This document shows positions 7,906 to 37,302 of a stretch of 37,533 nt of DNA, piece after piece. This DNA comes from Alphaproteobacteria bacterium (GTDB lineage Bacteria; Pseudomonadota; Alphaproteobacteria; Bin95). The stretch spans positions 1 to 37,533 of the forward strand of contig JAJDVH010000261.1 of the NCBI GenBank assembly GCA_022826185.1, written 5' to 3'. Numbering within the stretch: position 1 is the first letter of the stretch; each line of letters begins with the position of its first letter. The notes under the pieces were generated by a model. The model was not told the origin of the DNA. It did not search any database and was given only the letters and a program-made list of their open reading frames with translations. A program made the position numbers and the translations under genes.

Positions 7906-9369
7906 ATGGGCAACGGGAGCTACGAGCGGCTGGAGCGCCGCTTTGCGCGCATCGGCGACCTGAATGCGGCGGCGCGGACGGTGCGCTGGTATTCGCTGAC
8001 CTACGGGCCGCCGGGGGGCGAGGCCTCGCGGGGACACCAGCTGGCCACTCTCGGCGGGCTCGCGCATGAGCTGCTGACCGCGCCGGAGGCCGCCGAGGCG
8101 CTGGCGGCTGCGGAGGCGGACGAGCCCTGGCAGGCGGCCAATCTCAGGGAAATGCGCCGCCTGCACACCGCCGCCAGCGCCGTGCCTTCAGAGCTGGTGG
8201 AAGCGAAGGCGCGGGCCGTCTCGAGGGCGCAGGCGGTGTGGCATGCGGCGCGCCCCGAAGGCGATTTCGCCGCGTTCCTGCCGGCGCTCCGCGACGTTGT
8301 GGAACGGACCCGGGAGGACGCGCAGATCAAGGGCGAGGCGCGGGGCCTTGCGCCCTACGATGCGCTGCTCGACATCTACGATCCGGGCCGGCGCAATGCG
8401 GAGGTCGCGGCCATGTTCGGGGAACTGGAAGCGGTCCTGCCGGGCGTGATCGACAGGGTGCGGGGCGGTCCGAAACCGCCGGGGCCGGAGGGGCCGCGGG
8501 AGGGCCTCGAGAGAATCGCCCGGCGGATGATGGCCATGCTGGGGCTGGAAGAGCGGCATGTAAGGCTCGACGAGTCCGCGCACCCGTTCTCCACGGGCGA
8601 GCAGGATGATGTGCGCATCACCACCCGCTGGTCGGGGCCGCCGGGCGAGGCCCTGATGGGGGTTCTGCACGAGAGTGGGCACGCGCTCTATACGCGCGGA
8701 CTGCCGGAGGACTGGCGCCGCCAGCCGGTCGGCCGGAACCGGGGCATGACGGCGCATGAGAGCCAGTCGCTGTCCATCGAGATGCAGGCCTGCCGTTCGC
8801 GGGCCTTCGCCGTCCACTATGCGCGCCTGCTGGAAGAGGAGTTCGGCCCGGAGGGCGCGTGGGAGCCGGGGAGGCTCTACGGCGTGCTGACCCATGTCGA
8901 GCCGGACCTGATCCGGGTCGAAGCCGACGAGGTCAGCTATCCCCTGCATATCGCGGTCCGCCACCGCTGCGAAACCGCCCTGATCTCGGGCGCGCTCGAC
9001 CCGGCGGACCTGCCGGACGCCTTCGACGATGCGGTCGAGGCCCTGCTCGGCATCCGCCCGCCGGGCCCGCGCGAAGGCTGCATGCAGGACATCCACTGGT
9101 CGGGCGGGTCCTTCGGCTATTTCCCCACCTACACGCTCGGCGCGCTGATGGCGGCGCAGCTCGCCGAAGCCATGCGCGCGGCGCTGCCCGATCTCGACCG
9201 GGAGATCGAGCGCGGCAATTTCCGCCCGCTGGTCGGCTGGCTCAGGGAAAATGTCCACAGCAGGGGCTGCCTCGATGCGTCCTCGGATGGTCTCGTCAAA
9301 CAGGCGACAGGCCGTCCGCTCGACACCGGCGCCTTCCTCCGCCATGTCGAGGAGCGCTACTCCGGCTGA
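7906..9369 (+). CDS. Metallocarboxypeptidase, M32 family (carboxypeptidase Taq type)
   Basis: M32 enzymes are cytoplasmic zinc carboxypeptidases that trim residues from peptide C-termini. The 487-residue protein has the zinc motif HESGH (His255, Glu256, His259) with Glu285 in HESQS as the third ligand. It also has the conserved HPFSTGEQDDVRITTR stretch (about 226-241), and a C-terminal part with IHWSGGSFGYFPTYTLGAL, all typical of the family. The start at 7906 is supported by GGGGGAA 6-7 nt upstream; a longer frame begins at 7858. Oddity: the N-terminal motif that usually reads W-D-x-x-T-x-M-P-P-G-G is WYSLTYGPPGG here, so the Asp after Trp is lost. Catalytic residues are intact, so activity is still expected. 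Confidence 0.93.
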   Translation: MGNGSYERLERRFARIGDLNAAARTVRWYSLTYGPPGGEASRGHQLATLGGLAHELLTAPEAAEALAAAEADEPWQAANLREMRRLHTAASAVPSELVEAKARAVSRAQAVWHAARPEGDFAAFLPALRDVVERTREDAQIKGEARGLAPYDALLDIYDPGRRNAEVAAMFGELEAVLPGVIDRVRGGPKPPGPEGPREGLERIARRMMAMLGLEERHVRLDESAHPFSTGEQDDVRITTRWSGPPGEALMGVLHESGHALYTRGLPEDWRRQPVGRNRGMTAHESQSLSIEMQACRSRAFAVHYARLLEEEFGPEGAWEPGRLYGVLTHVEPDLIRVEADEVSYPLHIAVRHRCETALISGALDPADLPDAFDDAVEALLGIRPPGPREGCMQDIHWSGGSFGYFPTYTLGALMAAQLAEAMRAALPDLDREIERGNFRPLVGWLRENVHSRGCLDASSDGLVKQATGRPLDTGAFLRHVEERYSG

Positions 9370-9415
9370 CGGCCCGCCGCGAAGGCCGCCGTAATTCCCC
9401 TTCCCGGTTGCGGGA

Positions 9416-9814
9416 TCATGGAAGTGTCCAGTCTTCGCAAAGCAGCCCCTCGACGCGCTCGAACTCCCGGCTGTTGGCAGTGACGAGGACCAGGTTCCGG
9501 GCGCGGGCCTGGCCGGCGATCATCAGGTCGTACGGGTCGATCGGCGTTCCTGCGGCTTCGAGTTCGCTGCGCACCGCGCCGGCCACGCGCGCATCGCCAG
9601 CGTCGAACGGCACGATCTCGAACGCCAGCCGGTCGAGCAATTCGAGATTGCGGTCGGCGTACCGGCTCTTGTAGGCGCCGTAGTAAAGTTCGTATGCAAC
9701 CGGCGCGGGCAGGCCGATATCTGCGGGAGCGAGGCGGCGCAGGCGCGCCTGCAGCGGCGGCGAGGCGTCGTTGAGCAGGGCGATGCAGGCGTTGGTGTCG
9801 AACAAGTAGCGCAT
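9416..9814 (-). CDS. vapC: PIN-domain ribonuclease toxin (VapC family)
   Basis: VapC toxins are Mg2+-dependent ribonucleases that cut tRNA or rRNA when freed from their antitoxin. The 132-residue protein shows the PIN pattern: YLFDTNACIALL with Asp6, YELYYGAYKS with Glu42, PIDPYDLMIAGQA with Asp96, then the VLVTANSREFERVEGL...EDW ending seen in the FitB/VapC branch. The acidic residues for metal binding are in place. The ATG overlaps the antitoxin stop by one base (TGATG), so the toxin is translationally coupled to its antitoxin. It lies at the edge of a repeat-rich intergenic region, a common place for toxin-antitoxin cassettes. Confidence 0.92.
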   Translation of the reverse strand: MRYLFDTNACIALLNDASPPLQARLRRLAPADIGLPAPVAYELYYGAYKSRYADRNLELLDRLAFEIVPFDAGDARVAGAVRSELEAAGTPIDPYDLMIAGQARARNLVLVTANSREFERVEGLLCEDWTLP

Positions 9815-10062
9815 CAGCGGAAGGCGCTGCCGAGTCGCGACCGCGGCGGAAGCGCCGGCTGGTTGCGGCCCGCGGCGAAGAAATCCTCCGAGAACCGGCC
9901 CGCAATATCGTCGAGCCAGTCCCAGTCCGATGCGACGGGTTCGAGGATTACTGCGGCGCCCTGCCGGCGGATGCGGACTTCGGCGCCTTCCATCCGGAAC
10001 TCCTTCGGCAGCCGGACGGCCTGCGAACGGCCCGACCAGAAGAGTTTGGCGGTTGCGGTCAT
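9814..10062 (-). CDS. vapB: AbrB/VagC-type antitoxin (VapB family)
   Basis: The 82-residue protein carries an N-terminal swapped-hairpin AbrB-like DNA-binding motif ([20 protein letters not shown], then [14 protein letters not shown]). An acidic, aromatic tail ([17 protein letters not shown]) is expected to wrap around and block the toxin. The start at 10062 (MTATAKLF) has GGAG 6 nt upstream; the frame extends to 10089 without a better ribosome site. It should repress its own operon together with VapC. The AT-rich stretch at 10084-10102, including ATGATATATATC, lies just upstream and is the likely promoter/operator region. Confidence 0.9.
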
Positions 10063-17999: not shown

Positions 18000-18467
18000 T
18001 CAGTCCCAATGGCCGGTGCGCCGCGCCCGGTCCTGGTAGGCGCGGGCGTGGCGGGCGGCGATGCGGGCCACGCGCTCCGGCGCGAAACCGAGCTGGCCGA
18101 GCGCGATCGCAATGTCGAGCATCTCGTCATAGCGCGCGATCAGCCCGCTCCGGAGGCGGAAGCGCGACATGCCCTCGACGACCACCCGGCGCCCCGCCGC
18201 ATCCTCAAGGCGCGACCGGTAGCCGAACAGCCAGGAGGCATAGCCGATGTCGCCCGCTTCGCAGATGTCCTCGAAGCGCCAGCGGAAATCGTCCGCATCG
18301 CGCCAGAACCGGTTCTCCAGCATGTCCGCAATGGCGTCCCGGCCCTCGAACGCGCCGTAGAAGGTGTCGTGGTAGATGCCGTCCTCGGTAAAGCAGGCGG
18401 CCAGCGCCCGCCCGTCCCCCGCCTCCACGGCGGCGGCCAAGCGGGGCAGGAGGGTGCGTAGCGTCAT
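18000..18467 (-). CDS. SnoaL-like/NTF2-fold protein of unknown substrate
   Basis: The 155-residue protein fits the SnoaL-like cystatin/NTF2 fold (RTLLPRLAAAVEAGDGRALAACFTEDGIYHDTFYGAFEGRDAI, then the FRWRFEDICEAGDIGYASW strand set). The family includes small hydrolases, isomerases and binding proteins acting on hydrophobic pocket ligands. The start at 18467 is chosen because AAAGGAG sits 6 nt upstream; an ATG at 18485 lacks one. It stands alone on the minus strand, facing the ABC operon. Nothing links it to a pathway. Confidence 0.8.
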   Translation of the reverse strand: MTLRTLLPRLAAAVEAGDGRALAACFTEDGIYHDTFYGAFEGRDAIADMLENRFWRDADDFRWRFEDICEAGDIGYASWLFGYRSRLEDAAGRRVVVEGMSRFRLRSGLIARYDEMLDIAIALGQLGFAPERVARIAARHARAYQDRARRTGHWD

Positions 18468-18501
18468 CTCATGCTCCTTTCCCAAGCTTTTCGGAGTCTA
18501 T

Positions 18502-18521
18502 CCCGCATTTCTCACCAGGGT
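18502..18521. repeat. Possible solo IS end, similar to the IS1380-type end at 37303
   Basis: The 20-mer CCCGCATTTCTCACCAGGGT matches CCCGGATTTCTCACCGGGTG at 37303-37322 through the shared core ATTTCTCACC with CCCG and GGGT flanks (one substitution and one indel). No transposase lies nearby, so this may be a relic end or a chance match. Confidence 0.4.
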
Positions 18522-18619
18522 CACGGTCTGCGCTGCGATCCGTGACAGGCCACCGACCATGGGCTTGAACTCTGAATTGGCTGGCCGGTGAGGTTTCGTG
18601 TCGCGGCAAGCTGAAATAA

Positions 18620-18667
18620 ATAGAATATATTTTTATTTACATGTATTTTAGTGATGATATATTCTAT
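18620..18667. repeat. 11-bp inverted repeat in an AT-rich patch
   Basis: ATAGAATATAT (18620-18630) is exactly mirrored by ATATATTCTAT (18657-18667) around a 26-bp AT-rich spacer. In a two-thirds G+C genome this patch stands out. It could be an operator, a promoter zone or a mobile-element remnant 435 bp upstream of the kinase gene. Confidence 0.75.
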
Positions 18668-19102
18668 GACGGCAGCCGGGAGCTACTCGAGCGGTTACAT
18701 GACGTTGGAAAGTTGCATCATGCGGGCGATAGCGCGACATCGGCGATTCCCGCCGTTCACCGACGAAACGGGACCGCCCTGGCTTATTGCGACGCCGAGG
18801 CGCGAGCATCGGATTCGGCCGGTTGCCTGCAACGAGAATACAGAGGCCAAAGGCGATCTCGCCCGTATTGGCGCTAGAACGCGAGCAACCTCGCACCCTG
18901 GTGGGGCGTGGAACCTACCGGCCAGGCCGGCGGAGCCTGCGGCGTCGTTTCCGGCCTGCGGCATGCGAACCGGCACCGGCCAGCCAGCCTTCTCCAGGCG
19001 CGCGCGCCGCTTTGCCGGAGGCTGCAATAGGAAGCGGCCCGCCAGCGTCTCGGAGCGCCTCCGCCCACCGATCCAATCATAGACCGAAGGAATTCACGGA
19101 TC

Positions 19103-22100
19103 ATGGCAAAACAGAACCGCTCTATTCACCTGAGCCACCTATTTTCCGACCTCACCGGACAACTCGGCTTGGTCAATGTCAACTTTTCGCTAGCCCCTCA
19201 GTTCAACATTTACCGAACTCCGGCAGGCCGCTCGGGCGCCCCCTCTTCGCACCGGACGAATGACCAAAATACCCAAGCCAACGTGCCGGCCGCCGGGAAC
19301 ACCGGTCCTGCCGCCGACTCCCCAACAGCTTTTCATGTCGGGCCCGATCCTGTCCGGCAGACCCTGATTTCCGGAAAACGGCACACCCTTGTCCATCCAA
19401 GCCCCGATGGATCGTTCCGCATCGTATATACCAAGACGCAAAGCCTCTTTACCTTCACGCTCCCGTCGTCAGAGAGCGCGTCGCCACCCTCGGAGGCCGG
19501 GGAGGCCAAGGGGCCGATAACCAAAAACATCGACGGCTATCGGGTCAAATTCGATACTGTCCGGTCCATTGAGCAGGCGGACCCCAAAGACGCGAACCGC
19601 GAAAATGACCCCGATGCCCCCGTGTTGGTGGGACTTCCTCTCTCGATTTACCGGTCAGGCAGAGGAACGGAGTACTTTCTTCTTACCAATTTCTATTTCG
19701 ACCCTCCCGCCCAAGAACAGAACGAACCGGCGCAAGAATCCTCCCCAAATACGGAATCCCCGGGCGGAGCAACGACCCCTCCCAGCGACCCGGCAGATCA
19801 TCCCTCCATAGAAACCGGATCTGTCGATGGTCCAACAGCATCTCCTGACGGCTCGGCGGGAGGCCCCCCCCAACCTCCGCCTGTTGCAGTAGCGTCTCCT
19901 GGCGGTAACGAACCCCCGAATGGCCCCGATTACGTAGGCATTGCCAACCGTCGTCTCCAGATTACCTTATTCAGCGACTTAGGCGAAGTAACCAAGCGCA
20001 CCTTTTTCCTCGACGACCCTCCGAAAAAGCTCGGAGACGGTAGCTTCGGCGTAGTTTACCAGGTGCGCGAACTTCTAGGAACACCCTCCGAAACCTCAGG
20101 CAACGAAAGGTCGCCCCCTCCTCGGGCCGGTAGTGCGCAACCAGGCGCCCGGTACGCCTTAAAGGTGTTTTACAATAGGCAGATGATGACCCGTACCGGG
20201 CTCATTCGCGTGGAACCCGAATCATTCAATAAACTTGTGACTCACGAAGCCGATCAAATTACCGATGTTAGAGAAATATCAATTGCCAGCTTTATGGGGC
20301 ACATTTTTCAATCTATTAACACCAGCAAATCCCCAAACGATGTTCATGCCCAAGCTATGGCAATACTTGGACAGTCCGAACGACTTCAAAATGTATCTGC
20401 GAAACGATTTGGTAACGAAAGAAACATATCTCGCAGCATACGGGAAGTATTGGAATCCGAAGCAGGCGTGAACGTGAATGCCATCACATGTGTACAAACT
20501 GAATATGATACTACTCGCTTTCGCGACTCTGATATGTTTCGTTTTTTGCAAGAATACGAGCGCAAAAAGAACTCAAGTACTGCAGATAATCTCTCGGATT
20601 ATGCAATAGTGATGGAGCTATTTAACTTCACACTAGAAGATTTACTGGAAGCCCAATGGAGAATTTGGAGGGAGACAGGTGTCGATTCTGACAAAACACA
20701 TTCCGTCTCGGCATCAGGAGAGTATCGAGCAGCGCCTGTCCTTGGCGAAAACGTGATTGCAGGTAGGGACATAGGATCTAACAGAGACAACCGCCCTGTT
20801 GACGATCCGGCCCCTTTGGAGTATGAAAAAATAGTAACCGGATATGATATGGTGCAAAGCCTGCCATTTGCGCAGCGTCTAGCTGTCGTATATCCAATAA
20901 TGGAAGGGTTGTCAATCGCTCTACAAATGCTTCATGCCACGCGAAATTATCATCACGATATCAAGCCTGGTAATGTATTCATTAATGCAAGCTTGAAAAA
21001 ATTTTATGTGGCTTTGGGTGATTTCAGTTTTGTGGGGAGCGGAGTGGACAAGGGAACAACGGAGGCGGTACTCCGGGACTCGATTCAAACGGGGAGCCTG
21101 CATTTTCGTTCACCGGAGCAACGAGACTTCAATGACGCAGCATATGGGCTCGTGCGGCATTCCGGATGTTGTAAGAACCCTGGCCCGGAGTATGAGGATC
21201 GGAATGTCAGCGGTGGAGAGGGGTGGGCGTATGTTCGGATATCGGACCCGAAGTTTAGAGGCAGCACAATCGGTCTCAACGATGTGGTGGTTTTCCCGGC
21301 GGATCGCTATGGGACGGGCTATCGGGTTATCAAGGTGGAGAGTAAGAAGGATTACCGGGATGTTTGGTTGAATGTCGATGCGGGGGAATTTAAGAAACTT
21401 TTTCCCGAAGAAACCCGGACCAAGGTATTCCTGTATAAAGTCCCAACGGTTCGGTCGGATTTATTTGGCTTGGGAGCGGTGTTTTTCGATTTGCTTACCG
21501 GAGGACAGTCTGCGGAACGCTTTTACGAGGCGTTGAGGCCATTCGATGCACCCGAGGAATTGAACGGCAGGGAGGGGATCGGCTCAGAGGACGGAAACAA
21601 GCGTTTGACAGCAAAGGATATGGCGCAAAGATTCGATGCCTATCGGAGCGGAACGCGAGTAGGTAACTATGGGGAGTTTGGGGCCGCATTGTCGAATATG
21701 TTTCAGTTTTTCCGGAGGGGAGACGACTTTGCACCGCGGGAGGTGGTGGAGATTATAGTCAAGTTGATGGGAGGGAATTTAGCGGATTCTTATATGAATA
21801 CCAACGCTGCGGAGAGGCCAGTCCCGAAGCATTTGCAAAGGATTGCTCCCGAGGCGTTGCCGGTTTCGTGGGCCTTGCAGGATATTGAGGCGGTGGAGAA
21901 GAAGGGAATTTACGATTGGCGCGACGGTTTGGGGCAGAAGGGAGCGGATAATCTATTGTTGCGGCCCGAGCAGTCGCAGCAATTGTTGGAGATTGTGGTT
22001 GAAGCGCAAGGGGCTGTACCCGCGGGGTCGGAAGGCCAGGCCGAAAAGGACGTGTCAGGGGATAAAGATAAGGCGAAGCCAAAAAGCTGGATAGATAGGC

Positions 22101-22138
22101 TGGCCGAGAGGCTGGGCACTGTCCCGCGGACGAGCTGA
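19103..22138 (+). CDS. Large divergent protein kinase with proline-rich N-terminus (orphan)
   Basis: This 1011-residue protein carries a divergent Hanks-type kinase domain (about 305-890). Visible motifs are the glycine loop LGDGSFGVVY (310-319), the ATP lysine in YALK (Lys354), a hinge-like YAIVMELFNFTLEDLL (500-514), the catalytic loop HHDIKPGN (Asp619, Lys621, Asn624), the metal site DFS instead of DFG (Asp640), GSLHFRSPEQ (664-673) and SDLFGLGAVFFDLLTG (785-800). All core catalytic residues remain. Two long inserts are unusual: about 150 residues between Lys354 and the hinge, and about 110 residues (673-782) between the APE-like motif and the F-helix, partly beta-rich (YVRISDP, NDVVVFPAD, YRVIKVES). 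Residues 1-300 include a Pro-rich disordered linker (about 200-275). No transmembrane segment, PASTA or signal peptide is evident. G+C is about 52 % at the ends and about 40 % over 20221-20400, against about 68 % in neighbours, pointing to transfer. Function and substrate are unknown. Confidence 0.85.
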   Translation: MAKQNRSIHLSHLFSDLTGQLGLVNVNFSLAPQFNIYRTPAGRSGAPSSHRTNDQNTQANVPAAGNTGPAADSPTAFHVGPDPVRQTLISGKRHTLVHPSPDGSFRIVYTKTQSLFTFTLPSSESASPPSEAGEAKGPITKNIDGYRVKFDTVRSIEQADPKDANRENDPDAPVLVGLPLSIYRSGRGTEYFLLTNFYFDPPAQEQNEPAQESSPNTESPGGATTPPSDPADHPSIETGSVDGPTASPDGSAGGPPQPPPVAVASPGGNEPPNGPDYVGIANRRLQITLFSDLGEVTKRTFFLDDPPKKLGDGSFGVVYQVRELLGTPSETSGNERSPPPRAGSAQPGARYALKVFYNRQMMTRTGLIRVEPESFNKLVTHEADQITDVREISIASFMGHIFQSINTSKSPNDVHAQAMAILGQSERLQNVSAKRFGNERNISRSIREVLESEAGVNVNAITCVQTEYDTTRFRDSDMFRFLQEYERKKNSSTADNLSDYAIVMELFNFTLEDLLEAQWRIWRETGVDSDKTHSVSASGEYRAAPVLGENVIAGRDIGSNRDNRPVDDPAPLEYEKIVTGYDMVQSLPFAQRLAVVYPIMEGLSIALQMLHATRNYHHDIKPGNVFINASLKKFYVALGDFSFVGSGVDKGTTEAVLRDSIQTGSLHFRSPEQRDFNDAAYGLVRHSGCCKNPGPEYEDRNVSGGEGWAYVRISDPKFRGSTIGLNDVVVFPADRYGTGYRVIKVESKKDYRDVWLNVDAGEFKKLFPEETRTKVFLYKVPTVRSDLFGLGAVFFDLLTGGQSAERFYEALRPFDAPEELNGREGIGSEDGNKRLTAKDMAQRFDAYRSGTRVGNYGEFGAALSNMFQFFRRGDDFAPREVVEIIVKLMGGNLADSYMNTNAAERPVPKHLQRIAPEALPVSWALQDIEAVEKKGIYDWRDGLGQKGADNLLLRPEQSQQLLEIVVEAQGAVPAGSEGQAEKDVSGDKDKAKPKSWIDRLAERLGTVPRTS

Positions 22139-22150
22139 CGTTGCGCAGAT

Positions 22151-22173
22151 GGGGGACGGCACCGACCGCCCCC
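22151..22173. terminator. GC-rich hairpin between convergent genes
   Basis: GGGGGaCGG pairs with CCGCCCCC around a 6-nt loop, with one bulged A. It sits in the 43-bp gap between the kinase stop and the uxaA-type stop. No T tract follows on either strand, so it is at best a pause or weak bidirectional terminator. Confidence 0.35.
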
Positions 22174-22181
22174 GCGGCCCT

Positions 22182-23699
22182 TCACATCACCGCGCCGACC
22201 TGCCAGGGGATGAACTCCGCCGTGCCGAGGCCCTGGGCTTCGGACTTGGTGGCTTCGCCGGAGGCGACGGCGAGGAACTTGTCGAAGATCTCGCTTCCGA
22301 CCTCGGCCACGCTGGCCGCGCCGTCGGTAATCGTGCCGCAATTGATGTCCATGTCCTCTTCGAGGCGGCGGTACATCTCGGTGTTGGTGGCGAGCTTGAT
22401 CGAGGGCACCGGCTTGTTGCCATAGACCGAGCCGCGCCCGGTGGTGAAGCAGACCAGGTTCGCGCCTGACGCCACCTGCCCGGTGATGGAGCAGGGGTCG
22501 TAGCCGGGGCTGTCCATGAACACGAAGCCCTTGCGGTCGATGGGCTCGCCATAGCGGTAAACCCCGGCGAGATTGGTGGTGCCGCCCTTGGCCGCCGCGC
22601 CCAGCGACTTCTCCAGGATGGTCGTGAGGCCGCCCGCCTTGTTGCCGGGAGAGGGGTTGTTGTTCATCTCGCCACCATTGCGCTCGGTGTAGTCCTCCCA
22701 CCAGCGGATGCGCTCGATGAGCTTCCTGCCGGTGCGCTCGTCCACGGCCCGGCGGGTCAGCAGATGCTCCGCGCCGTAGATTTCCGGCGTCTCGGCCAGT
22801 ACGCCGGTGCCGCCATGGCGCACCAGCATGTCAACGGCCGCGCCCAGCGCCGGGTTCGCGGTAATGCCGGAATAGCCGTCCGAGCCGCCGCATTGCAGCG
22901 CAACGGTGAGTTCCGAGGCCGCGACCGGCCGGCGCCGCGCGCGGTCCGCCTCCGGCAGCATGTCGCGGATGAGGTCGCGGCCCCGCTCCACCGTGCGCCG
23001 GAGGCCGCCGGTCTCCTGGATGTTCATGGTCTGGAGGAAGGGGCCGCGCTCCAGCCCGTAGGCTTCGAGCAGGAAGTCGATCTGGTTGACCTCGCAGCCG
23101 AGCCCGACCAGCACGATGCCGGCGAAGTTCGGGTGGCGCGCATGGCCCCAGAGCACGCGCTGGAGGTTTTCGTAGCCGTCTCCCGCCCCGGCCATGCCGC
23201 AGCCGGTGGAGTGGGTGAGCGCCACGACGCCGTCCACATGGCTGTAGTCCGCCAGGATGCGGTCCTCCACCGCCTCGGCGATGAAGCGCGCGGCGGTGGC
23301 CGAGCAGTTCACGCTGGTCAGCACGCCGATATAGTTCCGCGTGCCGACGCTGCCGTTCGCACGCAGATATCCCCGGAAGCTCGCCCGGTTGCCTTCGGGC
23401 ACGAAATCGACGGGCTTCATGTCCCGCCCGATGGCGTAGTCGCGCTCGAAATCGCCCATCGCGCAGTTGTGGACATGGACATGCGCGCCGGCCTCCACCG
23501 GCTCGCTGGCGAAGCCGATGATCTGGTCGTATTTGCGGACCGGCTCGCCGACGGCTATCGGCCGCGTGGCGATCTTGTGGCCGGCCGGCACGACATCGAG
23601 CGCGGTGACGCCCTCGCCGGGTATCTCCGTTCCGGAAAGGACATCGACGCGGGCGACGACCACATTGTCTTCGGGCGCAAGGCGGATGGAGAGGGTCAT
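22182..23699 (-). CDS. UxaA-family altronate/galactarate-type dehydratase
   Basis: The family uses iron to dehydrate sugar acids such as altronate or galactarate to keto-deoxy acids. The 505-residue protein joins an N-terminal SAF domain (about 1-95, HVHNCAMGDFERDY) to the UxaA catalytic part. Conserved stretches there are VGTRNYIGVLTSVNCSATAA, HSTGCGMAGAG, LGCEVNQID, LQCGGSDGYSGITANPALG, NPSPGNKAGGLTTILEKSLG and DSPGYDPCSITGQVASGANL. The cysteines expected to bind the cluster or metal are kept. Length equals full-size UxaA. It is the last gene of a minus-strand operon, 15 bp after the MmgE/PrpD gene. The real substrate may be another hydroxy acid, since no hexuronate genes are nearby. Confidence 0.92.
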   Translation of the reverse strand: MTLSIRLAPEDNVVVARVDVLSGTEIPGEGVTALDVVPAGHKIATRPIAVGEPVRKYDQIIGFASEPVEAGAHVHVHNCAMGDFERDYAIGRDMKPVDFVPEGNRASFRGYLRANGSVGTRNYIGVLTSVNCSATAARFIAEAVEDRILADYSHVDGVVALTHSTGCGMAGAGDGYENLQRVLWGHARHPNFAGIVLVGLGCEVNQIDFLLEAYGLERGPFLQTMNIQETGGLRRTVERGRDLIRDMLPEADRARRRPVAASELTVALQCGGSDGYSGITANPALGAAVDMLVRHGGTGVLAETPEIYGAEHLLTRRAVDERTGRKLIERIRWWEDYTERNGGEMNNNPSPGNKAGGLTTILEKSLGAAAKGGTTNLAGVYRYGEPIDRKGFVFMDSPGYDPCSITGQVASGANLVCFTTGRGSVYGNKPVPSIKLATNTEMYRRLEEDMDINCGTITDGAASVAEVGSEIFDKFLAVASGEATKSEAQGLGTAEFIPWQVGAVM

Positions 23700-23714
23700 G
23701 GACGGACGCGCCTC

Positions 23715-25046
23715 CTAAGCGGCGAGCAGGTTGTGGAGTTCGCCGGCGCGGCCGGGGGCGTCGAAGTCCCAGGCGAGCGCGCTGAGCGTTTCGGCCGCCT
23801 TGCCCAGCGCCGGATCGGCGAGGGAGCGGAACTTGGCCTCCAGGTCGGCGCGGGAGAGCGGGTTGCCCGGATTGCCGCGCGCCATGGCCGTTTCGCGCCG
23901 GTCGGTGGCTCCGTCGAACCACCGGACTTCCAGCGCCGCCGAGCGCGTGTCCCGGCCGGGTTCGGCCACCGGCTCGACGCGGGCGAGCACCGAGCGCAGG
24001 TCCGGGTCGGCCAGCGTCCCGGCGGTGAAGTCGCCTTCCACCGCCGCCCGCCCCGCAAGGCCGAGCGCCGTGCAGAAGGCCAGGCTGAACTTGCCTTCGA
24101 GCGGGGTTTGCGGGTCCGCCTTGCCGGCACGGCGGATCGCGGCGGGATTGACGCGAAGCTCGATGCGCCGGGGCTCGCGGCCGGCCGCGTCGGCCGCCAG
24201 CGCCCGCGCGGCGTCGATGACCGGGTGGGTCAGCAGGCAGGCGGCATAGGGCTTGACCGTGTTGCGCAGCAGCTCCCAGCCATCGTCGAAATCCACCTCG
24301 CCAATGCCCGCCGCGCCGTCCTGCACCAGCGCGCTGCCGAGCCCGCCTTCGGCTTCCAGCAGGGTCTCGGACGCCTCGAAGCCGGCGGCCGCTAGCTCCG
24401 CCGCCAGCACGCCGTTCATCGCCGCCTTGCCGGCATGGAAGGGCTTGGCATGGGTGCCGAAGGAGCCGGTCAGGCCGCCGGCCTGCGTGGCGGCGGCGCC
24501 GAGCGCGCGCGCGATTCCGTTCTCGTCCAGCCGCAGCAGCACGGCCGCGGCGACCGCCGCGCCGAGCGCGCCGAAAATGCCGGTGGAGTGCCAGCCGCGC
24601 AGATTGGCCACCCCGCCGATGCCGTTGCCGAGGCGCGCGCCCGCTTCGAAGCCGGCAATGAAGGCGCCCATCATCTCCCGGCCCTCGGCGCCGGTCTGCT
24701 GCCCCACCGCCAGCGCGGCCGACCAGACCGGGGCGGAGAGATGCGCCGTCGCGCCGACATGGGTGTCGTCATAGTCGAGGCAGTGGGCGAAGGTGCCGTT
24801 GACGAGCGCCGCCCCGGCCGCGCAGGTCGTGCCGCCGAGCGCGATGCGCGCCCTGCCCTCGGCCCGCCAGCCCTCGACGACGCGGCGCACCGCCCGTCCC
24901 GCCGGCTCGCCGCGCGCGCCGAGCGTGACGCCCAGCGTGTCCAGCAGGCAGGCCCTCGCCGCTTCCATGACCTCGGGCGGCCAGTTCCGGCCGGGGGCTG
25001 CCGCCGCCCAGGACGCCACACGCCGGATCGTTTCGTTTTCGCTCAT
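23715..25046 (-). CDS. MmgE/PrpD family protein (2-methylcitrate dehydratase-like)
   Basis: MmgE/PrpD proteins dehydrate or isomerise tricarboxylic or related acids; PrpD acts on 2-methylcitrate. The 443-residue protein has the family pattern: ACLLDTLGVTLGARGEP, the VNGTFAHCLDYDDTHVGATAHLSAPVWSAALA region with the conserved D-D-T-H, GWHSTGIFGALGAAVAAAVLL, GSFGTHAKPFHAGKAAMNGVLAA and KPYAACLLTHPVIDAA. The start at 25046 (MSENETIRRV) has GGAAGGA 7 nt upstream; the frame continues upstream but without homology. No prpB or prpC is present, so methylcitrate breakdown is not supported. Together with the UxaA-type dehydratase it suggests catabolism of a hydroxy-polycarboxylate or sugar acid. Confidence 0.92.
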   Translation of the reverse strand: MSENETIRRVASWAAAAPGRNWPPEVMEAARACLLDTLGVTLGARGEPAGRAVRRVVEGWRAEGRARIALGGTTCAAGAALVNGTFAHCLDYDDTHVGATAHLSAPVWSAALAVGQQTGAEGREMMGAFIAGFEAGARLGNGIGGVANLRGWHSTGIFGALGAAVAAAVLLRLDENGIARALGAAATQAGGLTGSFGTHAKPFHAGKAAMNGVLAAELAAAGFEASETLLEAEGGLGSALVQDGAAGIGEVDFDDGWELLRNTVKPYAACLLTHPVIDAARALAADAAGREPRRIELRVNPAAIRRAGKADPQTPLEGKFSLAFCTALGLAGRAAVEGDFTAGTLADPDLRSVLARVEPVAEPGRDTRSAALEVRWFDGATDRRETAMARGNPGNPLSRADLEAKFRSLADPALGKAAETLSALAWDFDAPGRAGELHNLLAA

Positions 25047-37289: not shown

Positions 37290-37302
37290 GGCGTCCGGCT
37301 AA

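What the first reader, a model, noticed from the sequence alone, without database searches (positions are those of the whole stretch)
18486..22181. Low-GC islet inserted between ordinary genes
Hand counts give 40 % G+C over 20221-20400, about 52 % at 19141-19200 and 53 % at 21301-21360, against 68 % in a neighbouring gene (22261-22320). The islet starts near an IS-end-like sequence (18502) and an AT-rich patch (18604-18670) and ends 43 bp before the next stop. This looks like a single-gene horizontal acquisition, with a gradient suggesting partial amelioration or a composite origin.
Basis: partly seen in the sequence, partly recalled or inferred. Interest (0 to 1): 0.55.

Follow-up and report, generated by a model that had tools for sequence, protein, structure and literature searches.

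The report
Inserted kinase gene in variable slot
A bacterium's chromosome carries one foreign, GC-poor gene for an unusual protein kinase, dropped into a spot that is empty in some close relatives and holds other genes in others; it may be a virus-defence gene, but that has not been tested.

Summary
In detail: all four hand counts reproduce. The islet (18486-22181, G+C 0.544 against 0.702 for the rest) holds one 1011-codon kinase ORF with foreign codon usage (GC3 0.55 against 0.83-0.94 in 13 neighbours). Insertion is shown: in three congeners (G004, G005, G006) the flanking uxaA and snoaL-like genes are adjacent. The slot is variable: sister G003 (flanks 96-98 % identical) carries a different kinase of the same family, 27 % identical over 422 positions, same orientation; G002 carries a probable outer-membrane-barrel gene; in G001 uxaA adjoins a type I methylase. 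The 'IS-end' is real but single: one terminal repeat of a genus-wide MITE-like element.

The kinase belongs to a rare family (3 members found) with about 86-102 extra residues, a predicted beta-barrel, between the APE motif and helix F. Five of 11 other GC-poor stretches scanned in this genome carry genes matching defence families. Most likely reading: a horizontally exchanged, single-protein, kinase-based defence gene. Insertion is well supported; defence function is inferred.

The parts
18486..22181 (.). Inserted islet between the snoaL-like gene and uxaA
   Evidence: blastn homology to congeners stops at 18456-18482 and resumes at 22151-22184; G+C 0.544
18499..18532 (+). Solo terminal repeat of a multi-copy MITE-like element at the left border
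   Evidence: 32 of 34 matches to the family consensus; 63 matches (the window's own included) in 8 of 8 genus genomes; no partner at the right border
18620..18667 (+). AT-rich patch: promoter-like site 18636-18663 (10 of 12) inside a perfect 11-bp inverted repeat (18620-18630 / 18657-18667); possible operator
   Evidence: 5 promoter-like sites in 18400-22300 against 2.1 (sd 1.6) in shuffles; function not shown
19103..22138 (+). Kinase gene, 1011 aa
   Evidence: ORF; Pfam Pkinase E 3.9e-7, 30.2 bits, just below the cut-off 31.7; its relatives in G003 and G490 score 54.2 and 50 bits
19103..19954 (+). N-terminal extension (aa 1-284), Pro-rich linkers, no known domain
   Evidence: no Pfam match at E 1 or better; no significant match to the upstream ORFs of G003 and G490
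20033..20164 (+). Glycine loop GDGSFG (aa 311-316) and ATP lysine K354
   Evidence: G311, D312, G313, F315 and K354 invariant in three members
20951..21022 (+). Catalytic loop HHDIKPGN (aa 617-624) and metal-binding D640 (GDFSF)
   Evidence: HRD is HHD and DFG is DFS in this copy
21110..21460 (+). APE motif SPEQ (670-673), inserted domain aa 674-785, then helix-F Asp D786
   Evidence: 112 residues between Q and D here, 106 and 96 in the relatives, 10-11 in 11 ordinary kinases; AF2 of the G003 relative gives six strands in the insertion, 10-residue mean pLDDT 42-82
21800..22135 (+). C-terminal tail (aa 900-1011), shorter than in the relatives
   Evidence: alignment and ORF lengths
18000..18485 (-). 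Left neighbour: SnoaL-like gene, downstream of uxaA in empty-site relatives
   Evidence: (SnoaL_2 2.8e-19)
22182..23699 (-). Right neighbour: uxaA (altronate/galactarate dehydratase family)
   Evidence: (GD_AH_C 5.4e-103)

Best explanation
A 3.7-kb foreign islet carrying one kinase gene, with a promoter-like site of its own, has been inserted into the short gap (41 bp in G005) of a uxaA-snoaL gene pair. The gap is a variable slot in this genus, and its content is probably exchanged between strains by homologous recombination in the conserved flanks. The protein is a eukaryotic-like Ser/Thr-type kinase with an extra beta-barrel domain next to where substrates bind. Most likely it is a single-protein defence gene: the barrel and N-terminal region would sense an infection cue, and the kinase would then phosphorylate host or phage targets and halt growth or phage development. 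Shown: insertion, variable slot, foreign composition, conserved catalytic residues, extra residues at that place. Inferred: exchange by flank recombination, kinase activity, barrel fold in the window copy, sensing role, defence function.
For: Empty sites in G004, G005, G006. Other contents in G003, G002, G001, the last a type I methylase. Kinases 27 % identical over 422 positions between flanks 96-98 % identical, which speaks against plain vertical divergence. Flank mismatches between window and G003 rise left of the slot (29 of 481 against 95 of 4614 further left), as a recombination tract could give. Alien codon usage. Catalytic Lys, Asp, Asn, metal Asp, APE Glu and helix-F Asp kept in 3 of 3 members. 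Five of 11 other GC-poor stretches scanned match defence families: dCTP deaminase 5e-141, three AAA_21 ATPase genes at 5e-155, 1e-91 and 6e-63, type IIG R-M 1e-230. Controls: 0 of 10 GC-rich ORFs, 1 of 10 neighbour genes. Single-protein kinase defence exists: Stk2, as described in PMC11341870 (passages seen).
Against: The PADLOC matches (PD-T4-6 1e-9, mad6 1e-7) cover only the catalytic core, so they show 'a kinase', not 'a defence kinase'; a plain ABC ATPase of the window also hits a defence model at 1e-22. The immediate neighbours are metabolic genes. G002's slot content is not a known defence gene. HHD and DFS substitutions could mean weak or altered activity. Six of 11 GC-poor stretches scanned gave no defence match, one of them nuoL/nuoM-type genes. 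PD-T4-6, the nearest lone kinase system, gave only a very mild phenotype in PMC11514479 (passages seen). Flank divergence also rises at places away from the slot (59 of 750 at 23500-24250). No experiment.
Confidence: 0.5

Rival explanations
1. Horizontally acquired kinase with a non-defence role, for example signalling towards a eukaryotic host or regulation of nearby metabolism; the slot is merely permissive.
For: G002's slot holds a probable outer-membrane-barrel gene, not a known defence gene. The profile's best solved matches are eIF2-alpha kinases such as PERK, 6e-16, ahead of PDK1 and PknB.
Against: Rare, very divergent, swapped cargo that runs against its neighbours fits defence better (inference). 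Signal peptides and secretion were not tested.
Confidence: 0.3
2. Ancestral genus gene that diverged fast and was lost in most species; no horizontal transfer.
For: Two congeners carry family members at the same place in the same orientation.
Against: 27 % identity between flanks 96-98 % identical; foreign codon usage; found in 2 of 14 genomes of the order and 1 of 385 class genomes.
Confidence: 0.06
3. Cargo of a transposable element: the left end repeat mobilised the gene, and the other end decayed.
For: Terminal repeat 32 of 34 at the left border.
Against: No second end at the right border (best 18 of 34) and none at G003's islet (best in L023 21 of 34, elsewhere); paired copies of the family are about 0.17-0.33 kb and I saw no transposase by eye beside the unpaired ones, without a family search.
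Confidence: 0.12
4. Assembly or binning artefact joining foreign DNA to the contig.
For: The genomes are fragmented drafts.
Against: In two species, window and G003, family members lie inside continuous contigs between the same two genes, with open reading frames on each side.
Confidence: 0.02

Closest known systems
Stk2-type single-gene kinase defence (described from passages of PMC11341870; primary paper not seen)
   Same: one locus, one kinase, host-encoded
   Different: sequence relation not tested; the extra domain between APE and helix F and the N-terminal extension are not mentioned in what I saw
PD-T4-6 (PADLOC; passages of PMC11514479)
   Same: kinase-like, often a lone gene outside defence islands
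   Different: only about 75-80 residues of the catalytic core match; the published model there has a compact N-terminal domain (1-278, hit 4eqm, which I recall as a PknB-type kinase) followed by tandem modules, not a domain inside the kinase
KKP kinase-kinase-phosphatase module (passages of PMC11341870)
   Same: kinases in phage defence
   Different: three genes including a phosphatase, prophage-borne; here one gene
Core defence hotspots of Pseudomonas aeruginosa (abstract and outline of PMC10250203)
   Same: fixed core-gene borders with changing content
   Different: those have median sizes of 26 and 6 kb and more than 20 systems each; here 0-4.8 kb with one or two genes, and only 5 informative relatives

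Membership tests
Eukaryotic-like protein kinase superfamily | Glycine loop, ATP lysine, catalytic Asp and Asn, metal Asp, APE Glu, helix-F Asp (list recalled) | tested here: met
   Present in 3 of 3 members; the last loop glycine is Ala in G490
Eukaryotic-like protein kinase superfamily | Score above the Pfam Pkinase cut-off | tested here: inconclusive
   Window copy 30.2 against 31.7 bits; relatives 54.2 and 50
Eukaryotic-like protein kinase superfamily | Kinase fold in a confident model | tested here: inconclusive
   Full-length model pLDDT 30; core model 41, only parts of the insertion confident
PD-T4-6 defence kinase | Match over the whole family profile | tested here: inconclusive
   Best stretch covers positions 111-184 of 292
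PD-T4-6 defence kinase | Phage protection | not testable with these tools
   -
Stk2 | Sequence similarity to Stk2 and phage-triggered killing | not tested
   No Stk2 sequence was compared
KKP module | Two kinases plus a phosphatase side by side | tested here: not met
   Neighbours are SnoaL-like and uxaA; one PF00069 match in this genome at E 0.01
MADS | mad6 kinase inside an operon with the other mad genes (recalled) | tested here: not met
   Lone gene between metabolic genes
Insertion sequence or composite transposon | Terminal repeats at both ends and a transposase | tested here: not met
   One end only; the long ORF is a kinase
Variable genomic hotspot | Same flanking core genes with different or no content between them in relatives | tested here: met
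   Of 5 relatives with both flanks on one contig: 3 empty, 1 other kinase, 1 barrel gene
HAS/OB-like beta-barrel (for the inserted domain) | Structural match clearly above background | tested here: inconclusive
   Z 7-8 to Sen1/Upf1, F1-ATPase and HerA chains, within the range the tool calls a common arrangement; Foldseek none at E 1e-3

The most novel reading that the evidence does not exclude
A previously undescribed, rare single-protein immune kinase family whose sensor is a beta-barrel built into the kinase itself between the APE motif and helix F, so that binding of a phage component directly reshapes the substrate groove; alleles 27 % identical are swapped at one chromosomal slot, as expected of fast-evolving recognition genes.
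Probability: 0.35. Interest if true: 0.65.

Novelty: new variant of a known kind. Interest (0 to 1): 0.42.

Why it matters
It suggests that GC-poor single-gene islets flag exchangeable defence-like cargo in a genus known here only from draft genomes, and gives a precise slot (the uxaA-snoaL gap) where further strains can be read for new systems. If the kinase is an immune sensor, the inserted barrel offers a direct, testable idea of how a kinase can be switched by ligand binding without a separate receptor.

Tried and rejected
Close homologues: pattern search of genome contigs with the window protein found none, with the two-kinase alignment only the contig of G003. Viral contigs (two-kinase alignment, G490 protein), plasmids (window and G490 proteins) and phages (window protein) gave none. 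Phylum search: 12 of 398 genomes matched, own genome included; of the 11 others G490 has the extra domain and the other 10 are ordinary kinases with a gap of 10-11 residues.

Fusion idea: that the window's N-terminal extension equals the separate upstream ORF of G490 or G003. BLASTP E 0.05 and 1.2; not supported.

Second barrel copy in the C-terminal part of the relatives: hhalign probability 1.7 %, and 1 of 60 shuffles scored higher; dropped.

Skew switch as a family signature: strong in the window gene (fourfold G/C swing +0.63, p 3e-6; 42 control genes mean -0.04, sd 0.20, range -0.44 to 0.35), but +0.25 (p 0.09) in G003 and 0.03 in G490; the unrelated dCTP deaminase gene shows +0.66 (p 0.006). 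Real for this gene, cause unknown.

Full-length structure prediction: no use. Viral and PDB fold searches of the core model: no match at E 1e-3. The 382 bases between the AT-rich patch and the ORF (18721-19102) match nothing else in the 8 genus genomes.
Full report
What is there. The contig is about 70 % G+C except for one marked dip. It contains one long ORF on the plus strand, 19103-22138, 1011 codons, between a SnoaL-like gene (18000-18485, minus) and uxaA (22182-23699, minus). GC3 of the ORF is 0.55; 13 neighbouring genes range from 0.83 to 0.94, and its mean log-likelihood under their codon usage is -0.53 per codon against +0.37 to +0.59 for them.

It was inserted. I compared the locus in the seven same-genus genomes G001-G007. 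Their lineage is known here only through one record title, 'Alphaproteobacteria bacterium isolate jk18x7bins.95', a contig of the same length and content as G003's. In G004, G005 and G006 uxaA and the SnoaL-like gene are directly adjacent; in G005 the gap is 41 bp (my count). In G006 the SnoaL-like gene is itself cut short further on. In G003 the gap holds a different kinase gene of 1040 aa in the same orientation plus an upstream ORF (about 4.8 kb); its flanks are 97.6 and 96.2 % identical to the window's, while the kinases share 27 % over 422 aligned positions. In G002 the gap holds 0.9 kb with a probable outer-membrane-barrel ORF (E 2e-6, 28.5 against a cut-off of 28.7 bits). In G001 the SnoaL-like gene was not found in the 15 kb read, and a type I DNA methylase (E 2e-207) lies beside uxaA. 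In G007 the contig ends inside uxaA, so nothing can be said. Thus of five relatives with both flanks on one contig, three are empty and two hold something else. The gap lies between two genes of the same direction, and both kinases run against them.

How it may have come in. The left border is not anonymous: 18499-18532 is one terminal repeat (32 of 34 positions) of a short inverted-repeat element with 63 matches, the window's own included, in 8 of 8 genus genomes; 16 of 20 fetched places show paired ends, about 0.17-0.33 kb in all. No partner is found at the right border or at G003's islet, so the islet is not a complete transposon. Window and G003 differ more in the 481 bases next to the left border (29 mismatches, 6.0 %) than further left (95 of 4614, 2.1 %), as could be if alleles were exchanged by recombination in the flanks; but divergence also rises elsewhere (59 of 750 at 23500-24250).

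What the protein is. Pfam gives only a sub-threshold Pkinase match, but the two relatives, in G003 and in G490 (1000 aa, from another class), score clearly, and the catalytic residues align. The window copy reads HHD for HRD and DFS for DFG. All three carry extra residues between the APE motif and the helix-F aspartate: 112, 106 and 96, against 10-11 in the 11 ordinary kinases measured; a twelfth ORF had no recognisable APE motif and was not counted. AlphaFold2 on the G003 core with two sequences gave a poor overall model (mean pLDDT 41) but six strands within the insertion at 10-residue mean pLDDT 42-82. Its closest solved matches (Sen1/Upf1, F1-ATPase and HerA chains, Z 7-8) are within the range the tool calls a common arrangement. 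The family is rare: own genome only among 385 class genomes, own and G490 among 398 phylum genomes once ordinary kinases are set aside, own and G003 in the 14-genome order, G490 alone in its 48-genome class once ordinary kinases are set aside. The profile's best solved relatives by sequence are eIF2-alpha kinases (PERK 6e-16); I take this as likeness in the catalytic core only.

What it may do. Lone-kinase defences are described: Stk2 (PMC11341870) and PD-T4-6 (PMC11514479, where its effect was very mild), and a eukaryotic-like kinase among the systems of PMC9519451; for all three papers I saw passages only. The PADLOC hits of this protein are to the catalytic core only and carry little weight; a plain ABC ATPase in the same window also hits a defence model. 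Better support comes from context. In 687 kb of this genome there are 15 other stretches below 0.55 G+C. I scanned 17 proteins from 11 of them (4 stretches were not scanned): 6 proteins from 5 stretches match defence families at 1e-5 or better, among them a dCTP deaminase (5e-141), AAA_21 ATPase genes (5e-155, 1e-91, 6e-63) and a type IIG enzyme (1e-230); 11 proteins do not, including nuoL/nuoM-type genes. Controls at the same threshold: 0 of 10 GC-rich ORFs (10 given of 14 drawn from 290, some possibly not genes) and 1 of 10 neighbour genes. Together with a rare, very divergent, swapped, single-gene cargo and a type I methylase beside uxaA in G001, defence is the likeliest function, at about even odds.

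Working model. The AT-rich patch 18604-18670 (G+C 0.239) holds a promoter-like site inside a perfect inverted repeat, suggesting own, possibly repressed, expression. The barrel would sit near the substrate groove and act as a sensor that opens or closes it; the active kinase then blocks a host or phage process. Sensing, target and outcome are inference.

Open point. The 5' third of the gene is C-rich and the 3' third G-rich at fourfold sites (p 3e-6; outside the range of 42 control genes), with the A+T-rich centre between. It is weak in G003 and absent in G490, while the dCTP deaminase gene shows a similar swing. A composite origin or a local strand-specific mutation pattern is possible.

Literature. 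Searches of the held library showed no description of a bacterial kinase with this insertion in the listings I saw; this is weak evidence of absence. PMC10250203 (abstract and outline) describes core defence hotspots, the known kind that this slot resembles on a small scale.

Noticed in passing
window 18499-18532; L126-L128, L131-L142, L145: A short inverted-repeat element family (MITE-like, about 0.17-0.33 kb) is scattered through all 8 genomes of the genus searched; the window's second, weak match is at 37300 (23 of 34). I saw no copy with a transposase, by eye only.
   Followed up: partly
L055 9045-10562 (own genome, contig C20): Another GC-poor single-gene islet carrying a dCTP deaminase-type anti-phage gene (PADLOC 5e-141), with strong G excess at its 3' end.
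   Followed up: partly
L087 2123-5367; L050 5697-6983; L051 884-2176; L080 4687-5919 (own genome): GC-poor stretches with a type IIG restriction enzyme plus a methylase piece and three AAA_21 ATPase genes matching candidate defence families.
   Followed up: partly
L026 about 9270-9900 (G006): The SnoaL-like gene next to the empty slot is cut short; the adjoining sequence looks like a transposase remnant by eye (not tested).
   Followed up: no
window 18620-18667: Perfect 11-bp inverted repeat 26 bp apart enclosing the promoter-like site: possible operator for an unknown repressor.
   Followed up: no
L095 9001-13918 (own genome): NADH dehydrogenase-type genes (Proton_antipo_M matches) are unusually GC-poor for this genome, about 0.53-0.54 in the flagged windows.
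   Followed up: no
L068 10013-13891 (G490): The third family member lies 27 bp behind a 282-aa ORF of unknown family, suggesting a two-gene unit; G003 also has an upstream ORF.
   Followed up: partly
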